DNA from: Cyclobacterium plantarum
GTDB lineage: Bacteria; Bacteroidota; Bacteroidia; Cytophagales; Cyclobacteriaceae
NCBI RefSeq assembly: GCF_011290685.1
Contig: NZ_JAANYN010000011.1
Coordinates: 1 to 64,000, forward strand
Direction of reading: 5' to 3'
DNA: 64,000 nt
Within the stretch, counting starts at the first letter, position 1; every line of letters begins with the position of its first letter. Positions 50,227-64,000 of the stretch are shown here, in pieces. The translations under genes were made by a program, and so were the position numbers. The notes below the pieces were generated by a model, which was not told where the DNA came from, made no database searches, and saw only the letters and a list, made by a program, of their open reading frames with translations.

Positions 50227-51438
50227 ATGAAAAAGCCAAAATATCTTACTGCCAGAATCTGCTTTTTTATGCATATTTTGCTTACTCATCACTTTACGGT
50301 TTTTAGTCAGCGGCCGCCTACGAGTGGTCCAAACCCTGAGGAGTCAAATTTAACTCCCTTTATTATTGGGGGAACCGGTTTGGTAGTGGCGGCTGGATCT
50401 TATTTTTACCTCAAAAGCAGGGGACCAAAAGTACCGGTCACTGATAATTTACAGGATTATTTATGGCGACAGAACATCATGCCTACACCGGATGCCCTGA
50501 ACCTGATGTACGCTCTTAATCCCGGGCTTCGCGGCCAGGACATGATGCGGAAAAAAAAGAAGCTGGTCGATCCGGAATTTCCCGAAATTCCGGAAGAAAT
50601 GAGAAAGGCAGCTGCTGCTGTTCCCTCTCCTACCTTCATCATGCCCGAAAATTTAAAAGGGTTGATAGATGAATTTATATCCAGCATGGATGCTTTCAGC
50701 GGCATGACCTTGAAAACGATTAATCCGAATGTCCCAAAAGAGGCTTTCCGTGAAATCCTGACCAATTTAGAGCGTATGCTTACCGCTCCGGAACGGTTTA
50801 CGGAGTCCAGAAATGCGATTAAGGACCAGATGATGACAGATCTTATCACTGTCATCAATCAAACCGTTAATGGTGCCATCGATACCCAGGAGTTGTCAGC
50901 CGATAAGCTGGATCTTTTACAAGCCATTTCAGCCGATTTAGAGGATTTGTTGTATCCTGATCCCAGCCCACCTCAAATGGAAGTAGTTACTACCAAAGGA
51001 GATGGAAATCGGGAAGACTGGGGCTTGTTTTTGGCATCGGCGGGTAAAAATTTCAACGATAAATTGATATTCAATCGCAGATTGGTCAATCAGACTTCCC
51101 GGGAAAATGCAGATCTTAAGTGGTTTGCCCTTGCTGTTTATAAATATGGTGCTGATGGCGACCTAATTACCAAAGGGAAGGAAGTAGAAAAAAGGTACCA
51201 AATAGCTTATGCTTCACCCGCCCTTAAAGATAGAGAAGAAAGCTTCCATTCCATCCAGGGAAATGCCTCCTATGGAATGGCACTCCTGGGTAATGGAAAA
51301 TATTTTATAAAAGTGAAGGAAGGGGATGAAGAGGTGCCGGTTCAAAACCCAATAATCCATTTTGGACAGGCTTTTCACAACCCCGTAAAAGAATTACACA
51401 ATGATTTGACTAAGGTTATTATTTATTTACTGGAGTGA
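50227..51438 (+). CDS. Membrane-anchored protein of unknown function
   Basis: A 403-residue protein I cannot assign to a family. It begins with a signal-like segment (about 10-27, HILLTHHFTVFSQ) and has a transmembrane helix at about 45-62 (TPFIIGGTGLVVAAGSYFYL). The region 75-250 is helical and rich in Met, Pro and Leu (MPTPDALNLMYALNPGLRGQ, PEIPEEMRKAAAAVPSP, LKGLIDEFISSMDAFSG). The C-terminal ~150 residues look like a beta-rich globular domain (NREDWGLFLASAGKNFNDKL, YIRKVKEGDEEVPVQNP-type strands). It starts a three-gene unit; the next gene overlaps its stop (GTGA). Confidence 0.6.
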   Translation: MKKPKYLTARICFFMHILLTHHFTVFSQRPPTSGPNPEESNLTPFIIGGTGLVVAAGSYFYLKSRGPKVPVTDNLQDYLWRQNIMPTPDALNLMYALNPGLRGQDMMRKKKKLVDPEFPEIPEEMRKAAAAVPSPTFIMPENLKGLIDEFISSMDAFSGMTLKTINPNVPKEAFREILTNLERMLTAPERFTESRNAIKDQMMTDLITVINQTVNGAIDTQELSADKLDLLQAISADLEDLLYPDPSPPQMEVVTTKGDGNREDWGLFLASAGKNFNDKLIFNRRLVNQTSRENADLKWFALAVYKYGADGDLITKGKEVEKRYQIAYASPALKDREESFHSIQGNASYGMALLGNGKYFIKVKEGDEEVPVQNPIIHFGQAFHNPVKELHNDLTKVIIYLLE

Positions 51439-52049
51439 TTAAATTATTGCAATATAGGGCCGCATTGGTGACAGTTATGTTTGGACTGTTTGGTGGGGCT
51501 ATTTCCAATTTTTTGGTGATAGAAGAGTATTCATGGCTTTATTTTGGAATAGCGAGTATACTTGGTTTGACGGTCAATCTGCTCGTTTCATTTCTATTGA
51601 AAAGCAAATGGTCTAAGGGAATCAAAAATAACATCAAAATCGTATGCCTCTTTTTATTTACGGCTTTGGTGGTGAATTTGTATATGCACACCAAGTTCTT
51701 TTTGGAAAGAACTTTTGCCTATAAGGATTTTAACAATGAGGTAACCTATTATGTGAAAGGAACGGAATATACAAGCCTCGCGAAAGCTTTTAAACTGGCT
51801 AACCCACAAATTGAAAGTGATGCCGATTTAATCATGGAGGGGTTTGGGTCTCCATTGGAAAAAGGAAAAGTTTGGACAGAGGCTTCTATCATTGAAAGTT
51901 GGTTGAAATTAATTTCTTCCTATGCCCTGTTTATCATATTTTTTGTTGCCCTTATCTCGGTTCTGATCGAAGTCCTGGTGTCGCAATACGGCAAAACAAC
52001 TACAAAAACAATAGAAATCCTATCTGAAAAAAGTGCCGATTCGGGATAG
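51435..52049 (+). CDS. Small membrane protein of unknown function
   Basis: A 204-residue protein with four hydrophobic segments (about 9-27, 33-54, 68-86, 167-190) and a ~75-residue soluble loop between the third and fourth (FLERTFAYKDFNNEVTYYVK...NPQIESDADLIMEGFGSP). No family recognised. The GTG start overlaps the stop of the gene before it (GTGA), so translation is probably coupled. The two likely form one inner-membrane complex. Confidence 0.6.
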   Translation: MIKLLQYRAALVTVMFGLFGGAISNFLVIEEYSWLYFGIASILGLTVNLLVSFLLKSKWSKGIKNNIKIVCLFLFTALVVNLYMHTKFFLERTFAYKDFNNEVTYYVKGTEYTSLAKAFKLANPQIESDADLIMEGFGSPLEKGKVWTEASIIESWLKLISSYALFIIFFVALISVLIEVLVSQYGKTTTKTIEILSEKSADSG

Positions 52050-52112
52050 TTGGATTCGGATAGTAAACGGTATTGCGTTTCCAAATATAACAATTGAAAT
52101 AGAAGAAAACCG

Positions 52113-52844
52113 ATGAATACCTTAGCCATGTATCCTTTCCTGCGAATCTATTGGGGCTTGATCCTTTTTATTTTGGTCAGCTGTGAAAAATTTGATGATT
52201 TGTCCAATCCTGTTTTGAACAGATACGAGGTCCCTGCGGAGGTTCTCGAAGAAGTTTTTACTGCTGACATCCCCCAAAATTTGAGAAACGTAGATAATTT
52301 TTTTGATAGAATCAAGGAGCAGGGGATGGTCATTCATGAGGGAAACCAACCTCCCTATATGGTTGGTCCGACTGGCGCAGGGGTGCTAAAATTTACAATA
52401 GCAAACAATTGCATTTACGATGATAAAAACCCAAATAATGAGGGCTTTAGTTATGGTAAATATGAAGAATTGATTCAGGTTTATTCAGATCAGAATCAAG
52501 ATAATTTTCTGGCTGATATTGCCTATACTTCTATCTTCAACCCTGATTATCCTGAATTCCAAAGGGGTCTTGACAGTGGGTCAGCCACCGGTTACGTGTC
52601 TGGAAACCAAAACAGGGATTTTACCATTTTCTTAAAAATTACAAATGGGAAATACGATGCTGTCAACTACAGCGCGATATGGATCATTTCTGGTACGTAT
52701 GTGTTAATGGATAGAAAAAGCGAATTGACCAATGTTACAAAATGTATGGTAATGCTTGAGAAAAGTGAGGACCCGGAGGACAAGGTGGCCGACAGAGGAA
52801 CGGTTAGGATTTTCAGGGATGATGCCCCACAATGGTCGCCCTGA
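52113..52844 (+). CDS. Lipoprotein of unknown function
   Basis: A 243-residue predicted lipoprotein: hydrophobic leader (about 10-25) ending in the lipobox LVSCEKFDD (Cys at about 24), then an acidic, beta-rich domain with VGPTGAGVLKFTIANNCIYD and TGYVSGNQNRDFTIFLKITN. No family recognised. It lies 63 nt after the membrane protein on the same strand and is probably the third part of one unit. An internal start (Met6) is possible. Confidence 0.6.
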   Translation: MNTLAMYPFLRIYWGLILFILVSCEKFDDLSNPVLNRYEVPAEVLEEVFTADIPQNLRNVDNFFDRIKEQGMVIHEGNQPPYMVGPTGAGVLKFTIANNCIYDDKNPNNEGFSYGKYEELIQVYSDQNQDNFLADIAYTSIFNPDYPEFQRGLDSGSATGYVSGNQNRDFTIFLKITNGKYDAVNYSAIWIISGTYVLMDRKSELTNVTKCMVMLEKSEDPEDKVADRGTVRIFRDDAPQWSP

Positions 52845-52918: not shown

Positions 52919-54004
52919 ATGCCAATTTTCATGGATCGTCATGACATACCGGGAGTTTCAGCAGAAGATGTGGCAGAAGCCCATCAAAAAGACTTGTTGA
53001 TACAGGAAAAGTTTGATTGCAGGGCGTTGACTTATTGGTTTGATGAAGAAAAGGGCATGGCCTTTTGTTTAATTGAGGCTCCAAATAAGCAGGCGGTCCA
53101 GAATCTCCATGATCATGCCCATGGGTTAATTCCCAATCAGGTAATAGAAGTTGAACCAGATTTGGTAGCATCATTTTTGGGTAGAATAGAGGATCCCGTT
53201 AAAAAGGGATTATCCGGATCCGGTATCATCAATGATCCTGCCTTCAGGTGCGTAATCGGCATATTAATAGATGGATCAGCGATTTTTGAGTTTGGCAATC
53301 ATATCGATAAGATCAAATCAAAAATTCGAAAAGCGTTTAACCGGCACAGGGGTTTGGAGGTAATCCCGGAGGGGGAAGGTTTTTTGGCCTCTTTTGAATC
53401 CATAGATGATGCTGTGCGCTGCGCATTATTTTTCCAGGACTACTTTGATTCATCCAAAATTCCCATCAAAAACCCATTGCAAATAGGATTGGCAGCTGGC
53501 ATGCCTGTTTCTGGTGATAAGGAATTTTTTGGGCCTACCATAAAATTGGCAAAAAGATTAGGGATGATGGCCAAACCAGGTCAAGTCATTTCTTCAGCAA
53601 TTGTAGGTGAGCGGTTGGCCGATAAGGCTGTCGACTTTAATAGACTGGCTAAAGGCAATATTTTAACGCTAAATCCTGAGCAGGAGGAGTTTTTTAACCT
53701 GCTCATGGAAATCCTGGAGGAGGATGGCTGTGATGCTGCATTTGGTATCAATGCTTTTGCCAAAAAGACAGGAATGAGTAAGTCCAAGCTTTACAGAAAA
53801 ATCACAAAACTTACCGGTTATTCTCCCAATGATTTCATCAAAGAATACCGTTTGAAAATGGCTGTAAGGTTCATCCATAAACAAGCTGGTAACATTTCTG
53901 AAATTGCCTATGCCTCCGGTTTTAGTAGTCTTTCCTATTTTTCAAGGTGCTTCCAGGACAGGTTTGGAATTCTTCCGTCCATTTACGCCAATGCCATTGC
54001 CTGA
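52919..54004 (+). CDS. DUF4242-cyclase-like-AraC fusion regulator
   Basis: A 361-residue three-part protein. Residues 1-85 (MPIFMDRHDIPGVSAEDVAE..., YWFDEEKGMAFCLIEAPNKQ, LHDHAHGLIPNQVIEV) match DUF4242, a ferredoxin-like domain that binds nickel in SCO4226; H64/H66/H68 lie where ligands would be. Residues 108-245 follow the class III nucleotidyl cyclase pattern (CVIGILIDGS, GEGFLASFESIDDAVRCALF, FFGPTIKLAKRLGMMAKPGQ), but the second metal acid reads GEG instead of GDG, so it is probably a sensor. Residues 258-361 are an AraC/XylS DNA-binding domain with two HTHs (INAFAKKTGMSKSKLYRKIT, ISEIAYASGFSSLSYFSRCF). A truncated hemoglobin gene follows. Confidence 0.85.
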   Translation: MPIFMDRHDIPGVSAEDVAEAHQKDLLIQEKFDCRALTYWFDEEKGMAFCLIEAPNKQAVQNLHDHAHGLIPNQVIEVEPDLVASFLGRIEDPVKKGLSGSGIINDPAFRCVIGILIDGSAIFEFGNHIDKIKSKIRKAFNRHRGLEVIPEGEGFLASFESIDDAVRCALFFQDYFDSSKIPIKNPLQIGLAAGMPVSGDKEFFGPTIKLAKRLGMMAKPGQVISSAIVGERLADKAVDFNRLAKGNILTLNPEQEEFFNLLMEILEEDGCDAAFGINAFAKKTGMSKSKLYRKITKLTGYSPNDFIKEYRLKMAVRFIHKQAGNISEIAYASGFSSLSYFSRCFQDRFGILPSIYANAIA

Positions 54005-54075
54005 AGCAAACGAAAGATGAATCAGGATTGAAAATTTTTGAATGAATTGTTTTAAAACCCTTACTACTATCCTTT

Positions 54076-54083
54076 TACATTTG
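54076..54083 (+). promoter_or_regulatory. Candidate Bacteroidota -7 promoter element
   Basis: TACATTTG at 54076-54083 fits the Bacteroidota -7 consensus TAnnTTTG exactly and lies 37 nt upstream of the truncated hemoglobin ATG. A matching -33 TTTG is not present at the usual spacing, so this is tentative. Confidence 0.3.
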
Positions 54084-54120
54084 ATTATAATTGAAATTTA
54101 TAACAAAACCCAATGTAATT

Positions 54121-54507
54121 ATGAATACCGTAGCACAGAAAACATTGTTTGAAAGGCTGGGAGGAAAAAAAGGAATTACTTCACTGGTGGATGATATTGT
54201 AGAGGCCCATATGCAAAATCCGGTCATTCAGGTAAGGTTTCTTCCCTACAAGGAAGACCCTGAAAACCTGAAAAAAATCAAAGGTCACCTGGTAGATTTT
54301 TTCTCTGCTGGAAGTGGGGGAAATGTTGCCTATTTGGGTCGCGATATGGAAACTACCCACAGAGGCATGAATATCAATGAGGAAGAGTATATGGCAGCAA
54401 CTGATGATATCATGAACACGCTGGAGAAGCATGGTATTGATGAGGAATCCCAGAAGGATGTACTCGCAATTGCCTATTCCCTGAAGGAACAAATTATGAA
54501 GCAATAG
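54121..54507 (+). CDS. Group 1 truncated hemoglobin
   Basis: A 128-residue TrHb1 protein from the ATG at 54121. LFERLGGKKGITSLVDDIVE is the family N-terminus, and the proximal heme His is in TTHRGMNINEEEYMAATDDI. The distal pocket region (VIQVRFLPY, PENLKKIKGHLVDFF) reads normally. TrHb1 proteins bind O2 or NO and are used in NO detoxification or O2 chemistry. It directly follows a DUF4242-AraC regulator that may control it. Confidence 0.93.
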   Translation: MNTVAQKTLFERLGGKKGITSLVDDIVEAHMQNPVIQVRFLPYKEDPENLKKIKGHLVDFFSAGSGGNVAYLGRDMETTHRGMNINEEEYMAATDDIMNTLEKHGIDEESQKDVLAIAYSLKEQIMKQ

Positions 54508-58878: not shown

Positions 58879-59952
58879 ATGTCCATGAACAAGTTCCTTT
58901 GGCTACCTTTATTGCTTATCCATTGTGCTGTCTATTCTCAGGTAAGCAATGAGGATGTCTTTGTCAAAGGGATTTACGGCAACCCGGAAAGGGTACTCAA
59001 AGCAGGCTACGCTTTTGATAAGTTGGGAGTGAATGCCGTATTCGTCAGAAGGGCATCTTTAAATCAGGAATTTTACCAACAGGCCAAAGCTCAGGGATGC
59101 CGGATATTTGTGGAATTTCCCACCCTGAATGGAAAGGGCTATATCGAAGCGCATCCCAAAGCCTGGCCCATCAATGAAAAGGGAGAGCAGGCTGCTCCGG
59201 CCGATTGGTTTATGGGGGTTTGTCCTACAGATCCGGATTTCCAGGCCTACAGGGCCGAACAGCTCCGGGAAACCCTTGACAGTTATCTGGTGGATGGGGT
59301 GTTTTTGGATTACCTGCATTGGCATGCCCAATTTGAAACGGACCAACCGATACTGCCTGAGACGTGTTTTTGCGACCGTTGTACCGGTCAATTTGAAAAG
59401 GCCCATAACCTCCAAATTCCAGTGGAGGATATAGCAAACAGGGCCCAATGGATCCTGGCCAATCAGGAAACTGCCTGGAGGAACTGGCGAAACGGTATTT
59501 TGAATGGGTGGGTGACCGAAATGGGTAAAATCCTGAAGGAAAACCAACCCGATGCACTTTTAGGAGCTTTTTATTGTGCCTGGTTTCCGGAAGACCATAG
59601 AGGGGCTTTGTTCAACACCCTGGGCATTGATGTGTCTTCTTTGGCCAAGCGGGTGGATGTATTGGCTCCCATGCTTTTTCACCAGATGTATGGCAGGCCC
59701 GTAAATTGGCTGGGCGAGTACCTGGAATGGCTGGTCAAAGCTATCGATTCATCGGAGGCATTGGTCTGGCCCATTGTCCAGGCCCACGACAAACCCGGAT
59801 TAGTTAGCCCCGAGGAATTTGGAAAAGCCTTGCAGGAAGGTTCCCGTGCACCTGCTTCTGGCATCATGATGTTTTCTGAGCAGTCGCTTTTGGAAAATCC
59901 TGCAAAATTAAAGGTGATGCAGGACTATTACCGGAACAAAGGGTCTCAGTAG
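58879..59952 (+). CDS. Putative secreted glycoside hydrolase-like TIM-barrel protein
   Basis: A 357-residue protein with a signal peptide (about 1-20, ending VYSQ). The chain follows a TIM-barrel order: VFVKGIYGNPERVLKAGYAF, GCRIFVEFPTLNGKGYIEAH, DGVFLDYLHWHAQFE (an F-L-D acid after a barrel strand), LGAFYCAWFPEDH, DVLAPMLFHQMYGRPVNW, ALVWPIVQAHDKPG. This is the pattern of Bacteroidota putative glycosyl hydrolases that act on unknown substrates. CFCDRC (about 162-167) is a compact Cys motif that probably binds zinc or forms disulfides. A start at Met3 is possible. Confidence 0.75.
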   Translation: MSMNKFLWLPLLLIHCAVYSQVSNEDVFVKGIYGNPERVLKAGYAFDKLGVNAVFVRRASLNQEFYQQAKAQGCRIFVEFPTLNGKGYIEAHPKAWPINEKGEQAAPADWFMGVCPTDPDFQAYRAEQLRETLDSYLVDGVFLDYLHWHAQFETDQPILPETCFCDRCTGQFEKAHNLQIPVEDIANRAQWILANQETAWRNWRNGILNGWVTEMGKILKENQPDALLGAFYCAWFPEDHRGALFNTLGIDVSSLAKRVDVLAPMLFHQMYGRPVNWLGEYLEWLVKAIDSSEALVWPIVQAHDKPGLVSPEEFGKALQEGSRAPASGIMMFSEQSLLENPAKLKVMQDYYRNKGSQ

Positions 59953-60240: not shown

Positions 60241-63200
60241 ATGGAACCGATCACTTTTATAGATGCTGAAATTGATCCTGTAACCCATAAAATATTTGAT
60301 TTGGGGGCAGTTGATGAAAAAGGTGCCTTATTTCATGATCCTTCAATTAATGCCTTTATTTCATTTATTCAAAATTCCAGATTCATCTGTGGCCATAATA
60401 TCTTCAAACACGACATTGCCTACTTCAAAAAAGCAGGCCGCCTTTTCTGGCTTAAAGAAAATCAGGTAATCGATACCCTTTACTTTTCACCTTTATTATT
60501 TCCATCCAGGCCCTATCATGCTTTGCTCAAAGATGATAAGCTGCAGACAGATGAGCTGAACAATCCCTTAAGTGATGCCCTGAAAGCAAAGGACCTGTTT
60601 TATGACGAAGTAACTGCCTTCCAAAAACTGGACCCCTTAATTCAGGACTTGTATTATTTACTTTTAAAAGATCAAAAATATTTTGCAGCTTTCTTTCACT
60701 TCCTTTCCTTCAGCAAGCAAAATAATGATGTCGAAAAAATAATCCGGCAGGTATGCTATTCAAAAATTTGTGAAAATAGCAGCCTGACAAAGTTAATTTC
60801 GGAATACCCTATCGAATTGGCATATTGTCTGGCATTGATACAGGCGAAAAACAGATTTTCGATCACGCCCCCTTGGGTACTCAAAAATTATCCGGAGGTA
60901 CATCGAATCATGTTCTTACTCAGAAGTAAACCGTGCCTGAGGGGTTGCGCCTACTGCAACCAAACTTTGGATATCCATCGGGGCTTAAAGAGGTACTTTG
61001 GTTATGATGCCTATAGAGAGTTCGGGGGGGAGCCCTTGCAGGAAAGGGCTGTTCAAGCAGCAATTGACAATAGGTCCATTCTCGCTGTATTTCCTACAGG
61101 TGGGGGAAAATCCATTACTTTTCAGGTTCCTGCACTGATGTCAGGAGAAAGCACCAAGGGCTTAACAGTGGTAATCTCACCCCTGCAATCCCTGATGAAG
61201 GATCAGGTGGATAATTTGGATAAATCCGGCATAACCGAAGCAGTGACCATCAATGGTCTATTGGATCCTATCGAAAGGGCCAATTCCTTTGAGCGCGTGG
61301 AGGATGGTTCTGCCTCACTTCTGTACATTTCTCCGGAATCCCTTCGCTCCAAAACGATCGAACGGCTACTCCTGGGAAGGAATGTGGTGCGCTTTGTCAT
61401 AGATGAAGCCCACTGCTTTTCTTCCTGGGGACAGGACTTTCGGGTAGACTATTTGTATATCGGTGATTTTATCAAAAACCTCCAGGACAAAAAACACCTG
61501 GAGGATGGTATACCCGTTTCCTGTTTTACGGCTACGGCAAAACGGCAGGTCATTCGGGATATTCGTGACTATTTCCGGGAAAAACTGTCTCTGGACCTCG
61601 TTCTGTTTCAATCCCTTTCTTCGCGGACCAATCTTCACTACAAAGTATATCCCAGGCAAAGTGAAGAAGAAAAATACCAAACGCTCAGGGATCTGATCGA
61701 AGAAAAAAATTGTCCGACCATTGTCTACGTTGCCCGCACAAGAAGGGCATATTTACTGGCCCAAAGGCTTAGTTATGATGGCCTTTCTGCCCGTCCCTAC
61801 CATGGGAGGATGGAAAAAACAGAAAAATCAGCCAATCAGGACGCATTCATCAGGGGAGAAATTCCCACAATGGTGGCAACCTCTGCTTTTGGGATGGGGG
61901 TAGATAAAAAAGATGTGGGCATGGTGATTCATTACGACATTTCTGATTCCCTGGAAAATTATGTACAGGAAGCCGGTCGGGCGGGAAGGGATGAACAAAT
62001 AACAGCTGATTGTTATGTTTTATTTGATGAAGATGACTTGAGCAAACATTTCATTCTGCTCAATCAAACAAAACTTAGCCTGAAGGAAATACAGCAAATA
62101 TGGAAAGCCATCAAGGACATCACCCGGTTCCGTACCGTTGCCTCCCAATCTGCACTGGAAATTGCCAGGAAGGCTGGCTGGGATGATAACATTCGCGAAT
62201 TGGAAACCAGGGTTACCACTGCCATAGCAGCCCTGGAAGATGCCGGCTATCTCAAAAGGGGCCAAAATATGCCCCGGATATTTGCGAATAGCATCCTTTC
62301 CAAAAATGCCAACGAGGCCATTGAAAAAATCAATGCTTCAGACAGATTCCGGGAAAAGGAAAAGGAGGGAGGGATACGCATCATCAAAAAGTTGTTTTCC
62401 AGTAAAAGCAGAAAGGAAAGCCAGGACGAAGTAGGTGAATCGAGAGTTGATTATATCTCCGAACATTTGGGTATTGTAAAAGAAGAAGTAATCAATATCA
62501 TCAACCTGCTTCGGGAAGAAAACATCCTGGCCGATGCCAAGGACCTTCAGGCTTTTATCAAAAAAGGGGAAAATAAAAACCGTTCACTGGACATTTTGGA
62601 ATCTTTCGGAAAGCTGGAGAATTTCTTGTTGAATGAATTGGAAGAAACCGAAAAAACCTTTCACCTGAAGGCATTGAATGAAGGTGCTGAAGCAGCGGAA
62701 TGCAAAGATGTTTCTCCTCAGAAAATAAAAACAATTCTGAATTTCTGGGTGATCAAGCACTGGATAAAAAAGAAGCAACACTATACTTCCAAAAATCACC
62801 TGGCCCTCATTTGCATACAGTCGGTAGAGGTCCTGAAAGATAAATTGAGACAGCGGCATGAGCTCAGCAGGTTCATTATTGATTACCTGTTTGACAAAAG
62901 CAATCTGGTAGTGGAAAAAGGCTCAAAAGAAGGGCAGGAGACACTGGTGGAGTTTTCTGTACAGGAATTGAAAAAGCAATTCGAAACTGCTCCGGGTCTT
63001 TTTCATAAAGAGGTTTCCAGTTTGGATGTGGAAGATGCCCTGTTTTATCTTTCCAGAATTGACGCCATAAAGATTGAGGGGGGCTTTTTAGTGATTTACA
63101 ACCGGCTGAATATCGAACGACTGGAACAGGACAATAAAAGGCGTTATAAAATCGAAGATTATCAAAAACTGCAAAATTTTTACCAAAGTAAAGTAGAGCA

Positions 63201-64000
63201 AATCCACATTGTAGGCGAGTATGCCAAAAAAATGATTGTGGATTACAAAGATGCGCTACAGTTTGTTGAAGATTATTTTCAACTGAATTACCCCATCTTT
63301 TTGCGGAAGTATTTCAAGGGAAGCAGACAGAAGGAGATCAAAAAAAACATCACTCCTGCCAAATTCCGGCAACTTTTTGGACAGCTTTCCCCTGCCCAAC
63401 TGAGCATTATAAATGACAATAAAAACCAATATATAGCGGTAACCGCTGGCCCCGGAAGCGGCAAAACCAGGGTATTGGTGCACAAACTGGCCTCCCTGGT
63501 ACTTATGGAAGACATAAAGTACGATCAGCTGTTGATGTTGACTTTTTCAAGAGCAGCAGCCACAGAGTTTAAGCAAAGACTTTTTGACCTGCTCGGAAAT
63601 GCAGCCAATTATATCGCCATCAAAACCTTCCATTCCTTTTGCTTTGACCTTTTGGGAAAGGTGGGAAACCTGGAAAAATCCGACCAGATCCTCCCATTGA
63701 CAGTTAATAAAATTAAAAAAGGAGAGGTGGAGCCCAGTGGGATAAGTAAAGCCGTTTTGGTGATTGATGAAGCTCAGGACATGGATAAGGAAGAATTTGC
63801 CTTGATTCAGGCCCTGATGGAAGAAAATGAAGAAATGAGGGTGATCGCTGTGGGAGACGATGACCAAAACATCTACGAATTCCGGGGCTCAAGCGGAAAA
63901 TATCTTGAAAATTTTATCAAGTCCAAAATGGCCGTTCAATATGAATTGATTGAAAACTACCGGAGTAAACCCAATTTGGTGGCATTCACCAATGGTTTTG
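60241..64000 (+). CDS. Exonuclease-RecQ-UvrD fusion helicase (5' part; runs off the window)
   Basis: A single frame runs from the ATG at 60241 to the end of the window (1253 codons) without a stop, so the gene is cut. Residues 1-130: a DEDD-type exonuclease (FIDAEIDP with D8/E10, ICGHNIFKHD with D58, PLSDA with D112). Residues 230-240: a Cys cluster, PCLRGCAYCN. Residues 270-640: RecQ helicase with FPTGGGKS (K290), VIDEAHC (D388-H391) and QEAGRAGRD (576-584). The RecQ zinc-binding Cys set is not evident after the core. Residues 650-1050: long helical linker. From 1060: UvrD/Rep-type helicase with TAGPGSGKT (K1075), VIDEAQD (1175-1180) and GDDDQNIYEFRG. The UvrD C-terminal motifs lie outside. 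Expected role: DNA repair/recombination. Confidence 0.92.
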   Translation, partial: MEPITFIDAEIDPVTHKIFDLGAVDEKGALFHDPSINAFISFIQNSRFICGHNIFKHDIAYFKKAGRLFWLKENQVIDTLYFSPLLFPSRPYHALLKDDKLQTDELNNPLSDALKAKDLFYDEVTAFQKLDPLIQDLYYLLLKDQKYFAAFFHFLSFSKQNNDVEKIIRQVCYSKICENSSLTKLISEYPIELAYCLALIQAKNRFSITPPWVLKNYPEVHRIMFLLRSKPCLRGCAYCNQTLDIHRGLKRYFGYDAYREFGGEPLQERAVQAAIDNRSILAVFPTGGGKSITFQVPALMSGESTKGLTVVISPLQSLMKDQVDNLDKSGITEAVTINGLLDPIERANSFERVEDGSASLLYISPESLRSKTIERLLLGRNVVRFVIDEAHCFSSWGQDFRVDYLYIGDFIKNLQDKKHLEDGIPVSCFTATAKRQVIRDIRDYFREKLSLDLVLFQSLSSRTNLHYKVYPRQSEEEKYQTLRDLIEEKNCPTIVYVARTRRAYLLAQRLSYDGLSARPYHGRMEKTEKSANQDAFIRGEIPTMVATSAFGMGVDKKDVGMVIHYDISDSLENYVQEAGRAGRDEQITADCYVLFDEDDLSKHFILLNQTKLSLKEIQQIWKAIKDITRFRTVASQSALEIARKAGWDDNIRELETRVTTAIAALEDAGYLKRGQNMPRIFANSILSKNANEAIEKINASDRFREKEKEGGIRIIKKLFSSKSRKESQDEVGESRVDYISEHLGIVKEEVINIINLLREENILADAKDLQAFIKKGENKNRSLDILESFGKLENFLLNELEETEKTFHLKALNEGAEAAECKDVSPQKIKTILNFWVIKHWIKKKQHYTSKNHLALICIQSVEVLKDKLRQRHELSRFIIDYLFDKSNLVVEKGSKEGQETLVEFSVQELKKQFETAPGLFHKEVSSLDVEDALFYLSRIDAIKIEGGFLVIYNRLNIERLEQDNKRRYKIEDYQKLQNFYQSKVEQIHIVGEYAKKMIVDYKDALQFVEDYFQLNYPIFLRKYFKGSRQKEIKKNITPAKFRQLFGQLSPAQLSIINDNKNQYIAVTAGPGSGKTRVLVHKLASLVLMEDIKYDQLLMLTFSRAAATEFKQRLFDLLGNAANYIAIKTFHSFCFDLLGKVGNLEKSDQILPLTVNKIKKGEVEPSGISKAVLVIDEAQDMDKEEFALIQALMEENEEMRVIAVGDDDQNIYEFRGSSGKYLENFIKSKMAVQYELIENYRSKPNLVAFTNGF

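What the first reader, a model, noticed from the sequence alone, without database searches (positions are those of the whole stretch)
60241..64000. One protein joins a DEDD exonuclease, a RecQ helicase and a UvrD-type helicase
Motifs for three enzymes that usually act on DNA as separate proteins follow in one uninterrupted frame: exonuclease (D8/E10, D58, D112), RecQ (K290, DEAH 388-391, QEAGRAGRD) and UvrD (K1075, DEAQD, GDDDQN). A Cys cluster (C232, C236, C239) lies before RecQ. RecQ and UvrD move in the same (3'-to-5') direction, so coupling could drive two strands or switch motors. RecQ-UvrD proteins are known in Bacteroidota; the exonuclease start is less commonly described.
Basis: partly seen in the sequence, partly recalled or inferred. 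Interest (0 to 1): 0.75.

Follow-up and report, generated by a model that had tools for sequence, protein, structure and literature searches.

The report
Exonuclease fused to two DNA helicases
A single bacterial protein carries a DNA-chewing domain and two different DNA-unwinding motors; it turns up, whole and with its active sites kept, in scattered bacteria from several phyla and seems to move between them, yet our searches found no paper that describes it, so it may be an unrecognised repair or anti-virus machine.

Summary
One ATG-started frame at window 60241 runs past the window end to give a complete 1601-residue protein: DEDD-type exonuclease fold, four-Cys site, RecQ motor core, winged-helix bridge, UvrD motor core. 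In 90 full-length relatives from at least six phyla the exonuclease acids and tested helicase residues are invariant. In the phylum sample the N-terminal domain occurred only inside the fusion (15 of 15). Refinements: a fourth Cys, C177, is lost in exactly the two rows that lose C236 and C239; the DEDDh His position is Asn in 86 and Ser in 4; both motors are stripped, with no RecQ zinc/RQC/HRDC match and about 85 residues missing at each of the UvrD 1B and 2B positions. The gene is patchy (6 of 12 species of the genus), sits in a variable slot, and is closer to a copy from another class (69%) than to three of five genus copies (63-66%), although RecQ gives 39% and 73-76%. I favour a mobile accessory 3'-end-processing nuclease-helicase, perhaps anti-invader. 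Function is inferred; the defence-gene neighbourhood is only suggestive.

The parts
60241..60630 (+). DEDD exonuclease domain, residues 1-130 (D8 60262, E10 60268, D58 60412, D112 60574; His-slot residue N107 60559)
   Evidence: D8/E10/D58/D112, G51-H52-N53, D78-T79, H93, K97, P109 invariant in 90 of 90; AlphaFold model of residues 1-262 pLDDT 89.7; Foldseek top hit S. aureus DinG, prob 1.00, E 9e-3, then polymerase exonuclease domains
60631..60984 (+). helical linker with a four-Cys site: C177 (60769), C232 (60934), C236 (60946), C239 (60955)
   Evidence: CCCC in 88 of 90; the two exceptions lose C177, C236 and C239 together (one of them keeps a Cys at 232)
60985..62100 (+). RecQ motor core, residues 249-620 (Walker A K290, DEAH 388-391, QEAGRAGRD 576-584)
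   Evidence: TIGR00614 268.6 bits against cut-off 219.8, window part of the protein; E. coli RecQ 17-346, 35% identity, E 1e-56, no match beyond
62101..63375 (+). bridge, residues 621-1045: tandem winged-helix-like modules
   Evidence: AlphaFold model of residues 600-1045, pLDDT 78, pTM 0.53; Foldseek hits PadR/MarR, RPC62, OCCM, all weak; HTH families in up to 25 of 65 relatives at E <= 1, best 1.5e-4
63388..64000 (+). UvrD-type motor core, residues 1050-1253 inside the window (K1075, DEAQD 1176-1180, GDDDQN 1205-1210); continues outside to residue 1601, stop at G000:C2:65044-65046
   Evidence: Pfam UvrD-helicase and UvrD_C on the whole protein; spacing against E. coli UvrD
58879..59952 (+). 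left border gene of the variable slot (357 aa); not part of the system
   Evidence: found in 7 of 12 genus genomes; slot comparison

Best explanation
It is a fusion protein found as one unit, an accessory and horizontally moving single-gene nuclease-helicase. Shown: the architecture, invariance of the catalytic residues, the stripped motors, the patchy distribution; transfer strongly indicated. Inferred: it binds a free 3' end or branched DNA through the winged-helix bridge; the RecQ core opens the duplex; the UvrD core, lacking most of its 1B and 2B subdomains, translocates 3' to 5' in series or on the displaced arm and strips proteins; the DEDD domain trims the 3'-ended strand as it is fed. 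Most likely use (inferred): removing foreign or aberrantly ended DNA such as phage, plasmid or conjugative intermediates, that is, an innate anti-invader role rather than core repair, since the genome also has an ordinary RecQ and further UvrD-type helicases.
For: One frame and invariant active sites in 90 of 90 relatives. N-terminal domain found only in the fusion in the phylum sample (15 of 15). Patchy: 15 of 390 phylum genomes, 46 of 295 family genomes, 6 of 12 in the genus. Transfer: 69% identity with a genome of another class (G034) against 63-66% with genus members G398/G399/G404, while RecQ gives 39% and 73-76%. Variable slot: present in three species; other genes (three species) or about 1 kb (one) instead, no remnants. 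On plasmids of Bacteroidota, Campylobacterota, Alpha- and Gammaproteobacteria and cyanobacteria. An ordinary RecQ and further UvrD-family genes in the genome. Defence genes near some copies: DISARM DrmB/DrmC, HsdRMS; type I R-M, type II REase, AbiEi, Orf5/HEC-06 and PDC genes at 5 of 20 test loci at E < 2e-57, against 0 of 129 control proteins that strong.
Against: At the pre-set E <= 1e-15 there is no clear excess of proteins: at least 11 of 128 test proteins (one of them a RecQ paralogue, one a generic methyltransferase match) against at most 11 of 129 controls; the stricter cut was chosen afterwards. The window's own locus has no convincing defence neighbour: of six neighbours scanned, five had no hit and one a weak methyltransferase-type hit, E 1.4e-19. 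No recurrent neighbour gene (largest cluster 6 loci). None of the 25 best PADLOC models shown (of 68) fits the whole protein, only motor cores (window part). The exonuclease lacks the usual His/Tyr. No biochemical or phage data were available here.
Confidence: 0.45

Rival explanations
1. Accessory repair enzyme for stalled forks or damaged 3' ends, working like WRN (exonuclease plus RecQ) or Bacillota DinG (DEDD exonuclease plus SF2 helicase), kept by some strains as a stress-survival gene.
For: Nearest fold is DinG; B. subtilis DinG is a 3'-to-5' exonuclease that degrades forks from the 3' tail and is inactive as D10A E12A (PMC12525004, abstract and passages; that D10/E12 correspond to D8/E10 here is my inference); RecQ and UvrD are repair motors (established knowledge).
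Against: Patchy, in a variable slot and apparently moving across classes, unlike core repair genes; ordinary RecQ and further UvrD-family genes present.
Confidence: 0.31
2. Mobile-element helper: plasmids and integrated elements carry it for their own replication, end processing or establishment, and chromosomal copies are relics of such elements.
For: On one plasmid the gene lies next to ParA/ParB, on another within about 7 kb of ParA and single-strand-binding genes; integrases or transposases near several; 13 relatives at E <= 7e-26 in IMG/VR contigs, whose viral nature was not checked.
Against: No mobile-element gene recurs beside the gene; motifs are kept intact in chromosomal copies; no relative in 50,697 phage records beyond weak matches.
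Confidence: 0.16
3. The N-terminal domain is a pseudo-exonuclease: it keeps the metal-binding acids but without His/Tyr serves mainly to bind 3' ends or to sense structure, and the motors do the work. (A reading of the mechanism that can combine with any of the roles above.)
For: The DEDDh His slot is Asn in 86 of 90 and Ser in 4, never His.
Against: All four acids plus H93 and K97 are invariant in 90 of 90, unusual for a dead enzyme; H93 or K97 could supply the missing function (inference).
Confidence: 0.2
4. Assembly artefact or chance joining of neighbouring genes.
For: 8 of 80 fetched genome copies are split over frames.
Against: Same single frame in 90 proteins, including complete plasmids and isolate genomes.
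Confidence: 0.01

Closest known systems
DinG of Bacillota (DEDD exonuclease plus XPD-like helicase)
   Same: N-terminal DEDD exonuclease domain followed by an SF2 motor; best Foldseek hit of the N-terminal model
   Different: Helicase is RecQ-type (3'-to-5'), a second SF1 motor follows, a Cys4 site lies between exonuclease and motor, Asn replaces the DEDDh His
WRN (eukaryotic exonuclease plus RecQ; DEDDy assignment recalled)
   Same: Exonuclease then RecQ in one chain
   Different: No RQC or HRDC match, no Tyr, extra UvrD motor; WRN exonuclease was not among the 50 fold hits shown (of 309), so the likeness is probably convergent
Canonical bacterial RecQ
   Same: Motor core 35% identical to E. 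coli RecQ
   Different: No zinc Cys4 after motif VI, no RQC/HRDC match
UvrD/PcrA/Rep and GajB
   Same: SF1A motifs I-VI
   Different: Spacing at the 1B and 2B positions shorter by about 84 and 86 residues than in E. coli UvrD; fused at the C-terminus
Nuclease-helicase immune systems (Nhi, Gabija, Hachiman)
   Same: Nuclease and helicase joined in accessory genes (Hachiman and Gabija abstracts seen in the search listing; Nhi recalled)
   Different: Other nuclease folds and motor families (recalled); no whole-length profile match among those shown

Membership tests
DEDD 3'-5' exonucleases | four metal-binding acids (motifs I-III) | tested here: met
   D8, E10, D58, D112 in 90 of 90
DEDD 3'-5' exonucleases | RNase H-like exonuclease fold | tested here: met
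   model pLDDT 89.7; DinG and polymerase exonucleases top Foldseek, prob up to 1.00, but no hit at E <= 0.001
DEDDh or DEDDy subclass | His five, or Tyr four, residues before the last Asp (recalled motif) | tested here: not met
   position 107 Asn 86/Ser 4; position 108 Asn 80, Asp 6, Ser 3, Cys 1
RecQ family helicase (TIGR00614) | motor core above the curated cut-off | tested here: met
   268.6 against 219.8 bits
Canonical RecQ (TIGR01389) | whole-length score and Cys4 zinc/RQC/HRDC after the core | tested here: not met
   308 against 640.2 bits; no such Cys cluster, match ends at E. coli residue 346
UvrD/PcrA/Rep equivalogs | SF1A motifs | tested here: met
   Pfam UvrD-helicase E 4e-33 and UvrD_C E 3e-21
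UvrD/PcrA/Rep equivalogs | full 1B and 2B subdomains | tested here: not met
   Ib-II 47 (range 47-66) against 131 residues; IV-V 192 (180-217) against 278
WRN-type exonuclease-RecQ | DEDDy exonuclease plus RecQ plus RQC plus HRDC | tested here: not met
   no Tyr; no RQC/HRDC match
Known defence proteins (PADLOC: DpdF, PsyrT, GajB) | match over the whole protein | tested here: not met
   in the 25 best of 68 families only residues 243-631 or the UvrD core match (window part of the protein)
Anti-phage system | protects against phage or plasmid | not testable with these tools
   -
Defence-island gene | enrichment beside defence genes | tested here: inconclusive
   about equal at the pre-set cut (>=11 against <=11 proteins); 7 proteins at 5 of 20 loci against 0 at E < 2e-57, a cut chosen after the fact

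The most novel reading that the evidence does not exclude
A widespread, unrecognised single-protein immune machine: a DEDD-type exonuclease with Asn in the His slot, fed by two stripped-down motors of the same polarity (RecQ and a UvrD lacking most of 1B and 2B), which recognises invading or improperly ended DNA and destroys it, spread by horizontal transfer across at least six phyla.
Probability: 0.32. Interest if true: 0.82.

Novelty: new variant of a known kind. Interest (0 to 1): 0.57.

Why it matters
Public annotation names this protein after one of its three enzymes. Two same-direction motors with an exonuclease in one chain is a design for which our searches found no described example, and the loss of most of the UvrD 1B and 2B regions makes a testable prediction of an unrestrained motor. 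The four-Cys site and the Asn in the DEDD active site are further points for biochemistry. If it proves to be defence, a common solo immune gene has been overlooked; if repair, bacteria have independently evolved a WRN-like exonuclease-RecQ.

Tried and rejected
Artefact or frame error: rejected. RecBCD-like opposite-polarity motors: rejected on established motor polarity. Direct profile proof of the exonuclease from the window sequence: failed (E. coli DnaQ by hhalign matched only the motif I region, probability 5%). Membership in DpdF, PsyrT or GajB: rejected, partial matches only. Conserved operon partner: none found. Phage records: the exonuclease-region query gave nine weak matches, E 9e-4 or worse, two of them annotated as DNA polymerase I. 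Descent of all genus copies from one insertion: not supported, since G398/G399/G404 lack the left border gene and have only 33-34% matches to the right one and differ by 34-37% in the protein; but G000, G402 and G405 share the slot, with identities (97%, 78%) close to those of RecQ (92%, 77%), so vertical descent is likely among these three. Defence-island enrichment: suggestive at best. Iron-sulphur against zinc at the Cys4 site: cannot be decided here. Prevalence in Bacillota and Desulfobacterota could not be sampled.
Full report
OBSERVATION. The frame that starts with ATG at 60241 is open to the window end. The assembly continues it to a stop at G000:C2:65044-65046, giving 1601 residues. 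The UvrD C-terminal motifs missing from the window are present (UvrD_C at 1386-1472).

IS IT REAL AND CONSERVED? A phylum sample gave full-length matches (45-69% identity) in 14 genomes besides the window's own, 15 of 395 in all; the other genomes counted in that tally match, as far as listed, only in the RecQ part. A repeat on nearly the same sample with a profile of residues 1-262 gave the same 15 genomes, of 390, and each match lies in a frame of 1601-1731 aa without internal stops. In this sample the N-terminal domain was therefore never found outside the fusion. In a 295-genome sample of the window's family 46 genomes matched (47 matches); 43 matches are in frames of at least 1590 aa (one with a TAA inside the match), the other four in frames of 103 (TAA inside), 1258, 1292 and 1472 aa. 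Plasmid records add Campylobacterota, Pseudomonadota and Cyanobacteriota (24 records at E <= 1e-60). One ORF spans query residues <=45 to >=1460 in 75 of the 100 loci L036-L135 (60 of 80 genome, 10 of 15 viral-contig, 5 of 5 plasmid). The 25 others were dropped before the residue counts; of the 20 genome loci dropped, 8 are split over frames and 12 are cut by contig ends or stop near them.

ANATOMY. In 90 proteins (window, those 75, and 14) D8, E10, D58, D112, G51-H52-N53, D78-T79, H93, K97, P109 and the tested RecQ and UvrD motif residues (K290, D388, E389, H391, F400, Q576, R580, R583, K1075, D1176, E1177, Q1179, D1180, D1206-D1208, Q1209, R1241, H1431, K1434, E1437, R1457, R1465) are invariant, 90 of 90. 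The slot five residues before the last Asp, where DEDDh enzymes have His (recalled from the family's known motif), is Asn in 86 and Ser in 4; the DEDDy position is Asn in 80. C177, C232, C236 and C239 form CCCC in 88 of 90.

The model of residues 1-262 is good (pLDDT 89.7, pTM 0.86). Its best Foldseek hits are S. aureus DinG, T7 DNA polymerase, E. coli Pol II and other polymerases (probabilities up to 1.00, but no E-value below 9e-3). Relatives hit the PolB exonuclease family weakly (11 of 65, best E 6e-4), and a PDB profile search put PolC and DnaQ exonucleases among the top hits at E 0.05-0.14, not significant alone. The window sequence alone hits no exonuclease in Pfam or PDB sequences; in PHROGs it hits phage polymerase families weakly (best E 1.4e-4).

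The RecQ core passes the RecQ subfamily cut-off (268.6 against 219.8 bits) but falls far below canonical RecQ (308 against 640.2). It aligns to E. coli RecQ residues 17-346 only, and the Cys4 zinc site that follows there is absent. Residues 600-1045 model as tandem winged-helix-like modules at moderate confidence (pLDDT 78, pTM 0.53), with weak fold hits to winged-helix proteins, none at E <= 0.001; HTH families ring in up to 25 of 65 relatives at E <= 1. In the UvrD part the Ib-to-II distance is 47 residues (range 47-66) against 131 in E. coli UvrD, and IV-to-V is 192 (180-217) against 278, over all 90: most of 1B, and about 85 residues at the 2B position, are missing.

DISTRIBUTION AND MOVEMENT. 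Six of 12 genus genomes carry it. Between a 357-aa gene and a 475-aa gene, G000, G402 and G405 have the fusion. In G401 and G396 the slot holds homologues of the window genes at 50227-52844 (65-92% identity), in G400 one of them and two fragments, and in G403 about 1 kb (flanks located). None of these four has a remnant of the fusion (tblastn). The right border gene of G403 is the most similar to that of G000 (95%), yet G403 lacks the fusion, so gain or loss is probably recent there. Within G000, G402 and G405 the fusion is 97% and 78% identical to that of G000, and RecQ 92% and 77%: ordinary descent. But the copies of G398, G399 and G404 are only 62.7-65.8% identical to those three, while G034, from another class, is 69% identical to G000. 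The ordinary RecQ gives 73-76% with G398/G399/G404 and 39% with G034. This is strong evidence for horizontal transfer; old duplication with many losses is the less likely alternative. The quick tree mixes Chlorobiota, Lentisphaerota and a deltaproteobacterium with Bacteroidota, but it warns of long branches, and these three names come from metagenome bins. The host genome keeps an ordinary 640-aa RecQ (E. coli RecQ E 1e-102) and further UvrD-family genes, one in a 760-aa frame, so the fusion is an extra.

CONTEXT. No neighbour recurs in more than 6 loci. On plasmids the gene lies next to ParA/ParB or within about 7 kb of ParA, near toxin-antitoxin genes, beside HsdRMS, about 4 kb from Cas6 and, in Scytonema, downstream of a DISARM-like DrmB/DrmC set. 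Other plasmid regions read show no such annotated gene or carry no annotation. In a paired test of 20 gene neighbourhoods against 20 stretches of the same contigs (128 of 222 and 129 of 245 ORFs scanned), PADLOC at the pre-set E <= 1e-15 gave 130 families (25 shown) against 10. Many models hit one protein, so family counts overstate the difference: of 21 test proteins then scanned singly (20; one) 11 have a hit, one a RecQ paralogue and one a generic methyltransferase-type match, while the control set can hold at most 11. At the pre-set cut there is thus no clear excess. The strong hits are all in the test set: HsdM, HsdS, type II REase, AbiEi, PDC-S41, an Orf5/HEC-06 protein and PDC-S18, seven proteins at 5 of 20 loci at E < 2e-57; the control's best is 2e-45. 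That cut was chosen afterwards. The window's own locus has none of these (six neighbours scanned). I call the association suggestive.

MECHANISM. Established knowledge: RecQ and UvrD translocate 3' to 5', and DEDD exonucleases digest from 3' ends. A 3'-end-first machine follows: bind a 3' end or fork, unwind, trim. Two motors of the same polarity would diverge on one duplex, so they must act in series on one strand or on two arms of a fork. B. subtilis DinG is the best experimental parallel for the nuclease half: a 3'-to-5' exonuclease that acts on forks and is inactive as D10A E12A (PMC12525004; abstract and passages seen). Whether the target is foreign DNA or the cell's own damaged forks is not shown. 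Patchiness, transfer, the variable slot and the ordinary helicases elsewhere favour an accessory anti-invader role (about 0.45); repair (about 0.3) and element-helper roles (about 0.15) remain.

LITERATURE. Ten searches of the held open-access library listed no paper that by its title or shown abstract describes an exonuclease-RecQ-UvrD protein; I did not open most of the listed papers. The searches for 'RecQ domain' with 'UvrD domain' and for joined names returned none. Subscription papers, preprint servers and domain databases such as InterPro were not searched. Hachiman and Gabija were seen only as abstracts in the listing; Nhi and WRN details are recalled; of PMC5512222 only passages were seen.

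Noticed in passing
L132:1-1911 (IMG/VR contig): A family gene is cut off after about residue 130 and is followed by a tyrosine-recombinase-like ORF and phage tail-like genes, as if a prophage had integrated inside the exonuclease-RecQ-UvrD gene (gene identities by eye).
   Followed up: partly
L175:137-10215 (Scytonema plasmid): A family gene lies downstream of DrmB/DrmC (PADLOC E 8e-81 and 1e-128) of a DISARM-like set, two genes in between.
   Followed up: partly
window 50227-52844 and 52919-54507: Homologues of the window genes at 50227-52844 fill the fusion's slot in G401 and G396 (in part in G400), and those of 52919-54507 directly follow the fusion in G402: local shuffling of one neighbourhood within the genus.
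   Followed up: partly
L186:14672-16972: A second RecQ-like gene (767 aa; DpdF profile over 30-647, E 2e-204) lies about 2 kb from the fusion in G091.
   Followed up: partly
L192:4544-5224: A type II restriction enzyme match (E 1e-82) lies about 3 kb from the fusion in G034, the genome with the fusion most similar to the window's in the phylum sample.
   Followed up: no
window 1-64000: ARAGORN finds no tRNA or tmRNA gene in the window, so no tRNA anchors an integrated element there.
   Followed up: yes
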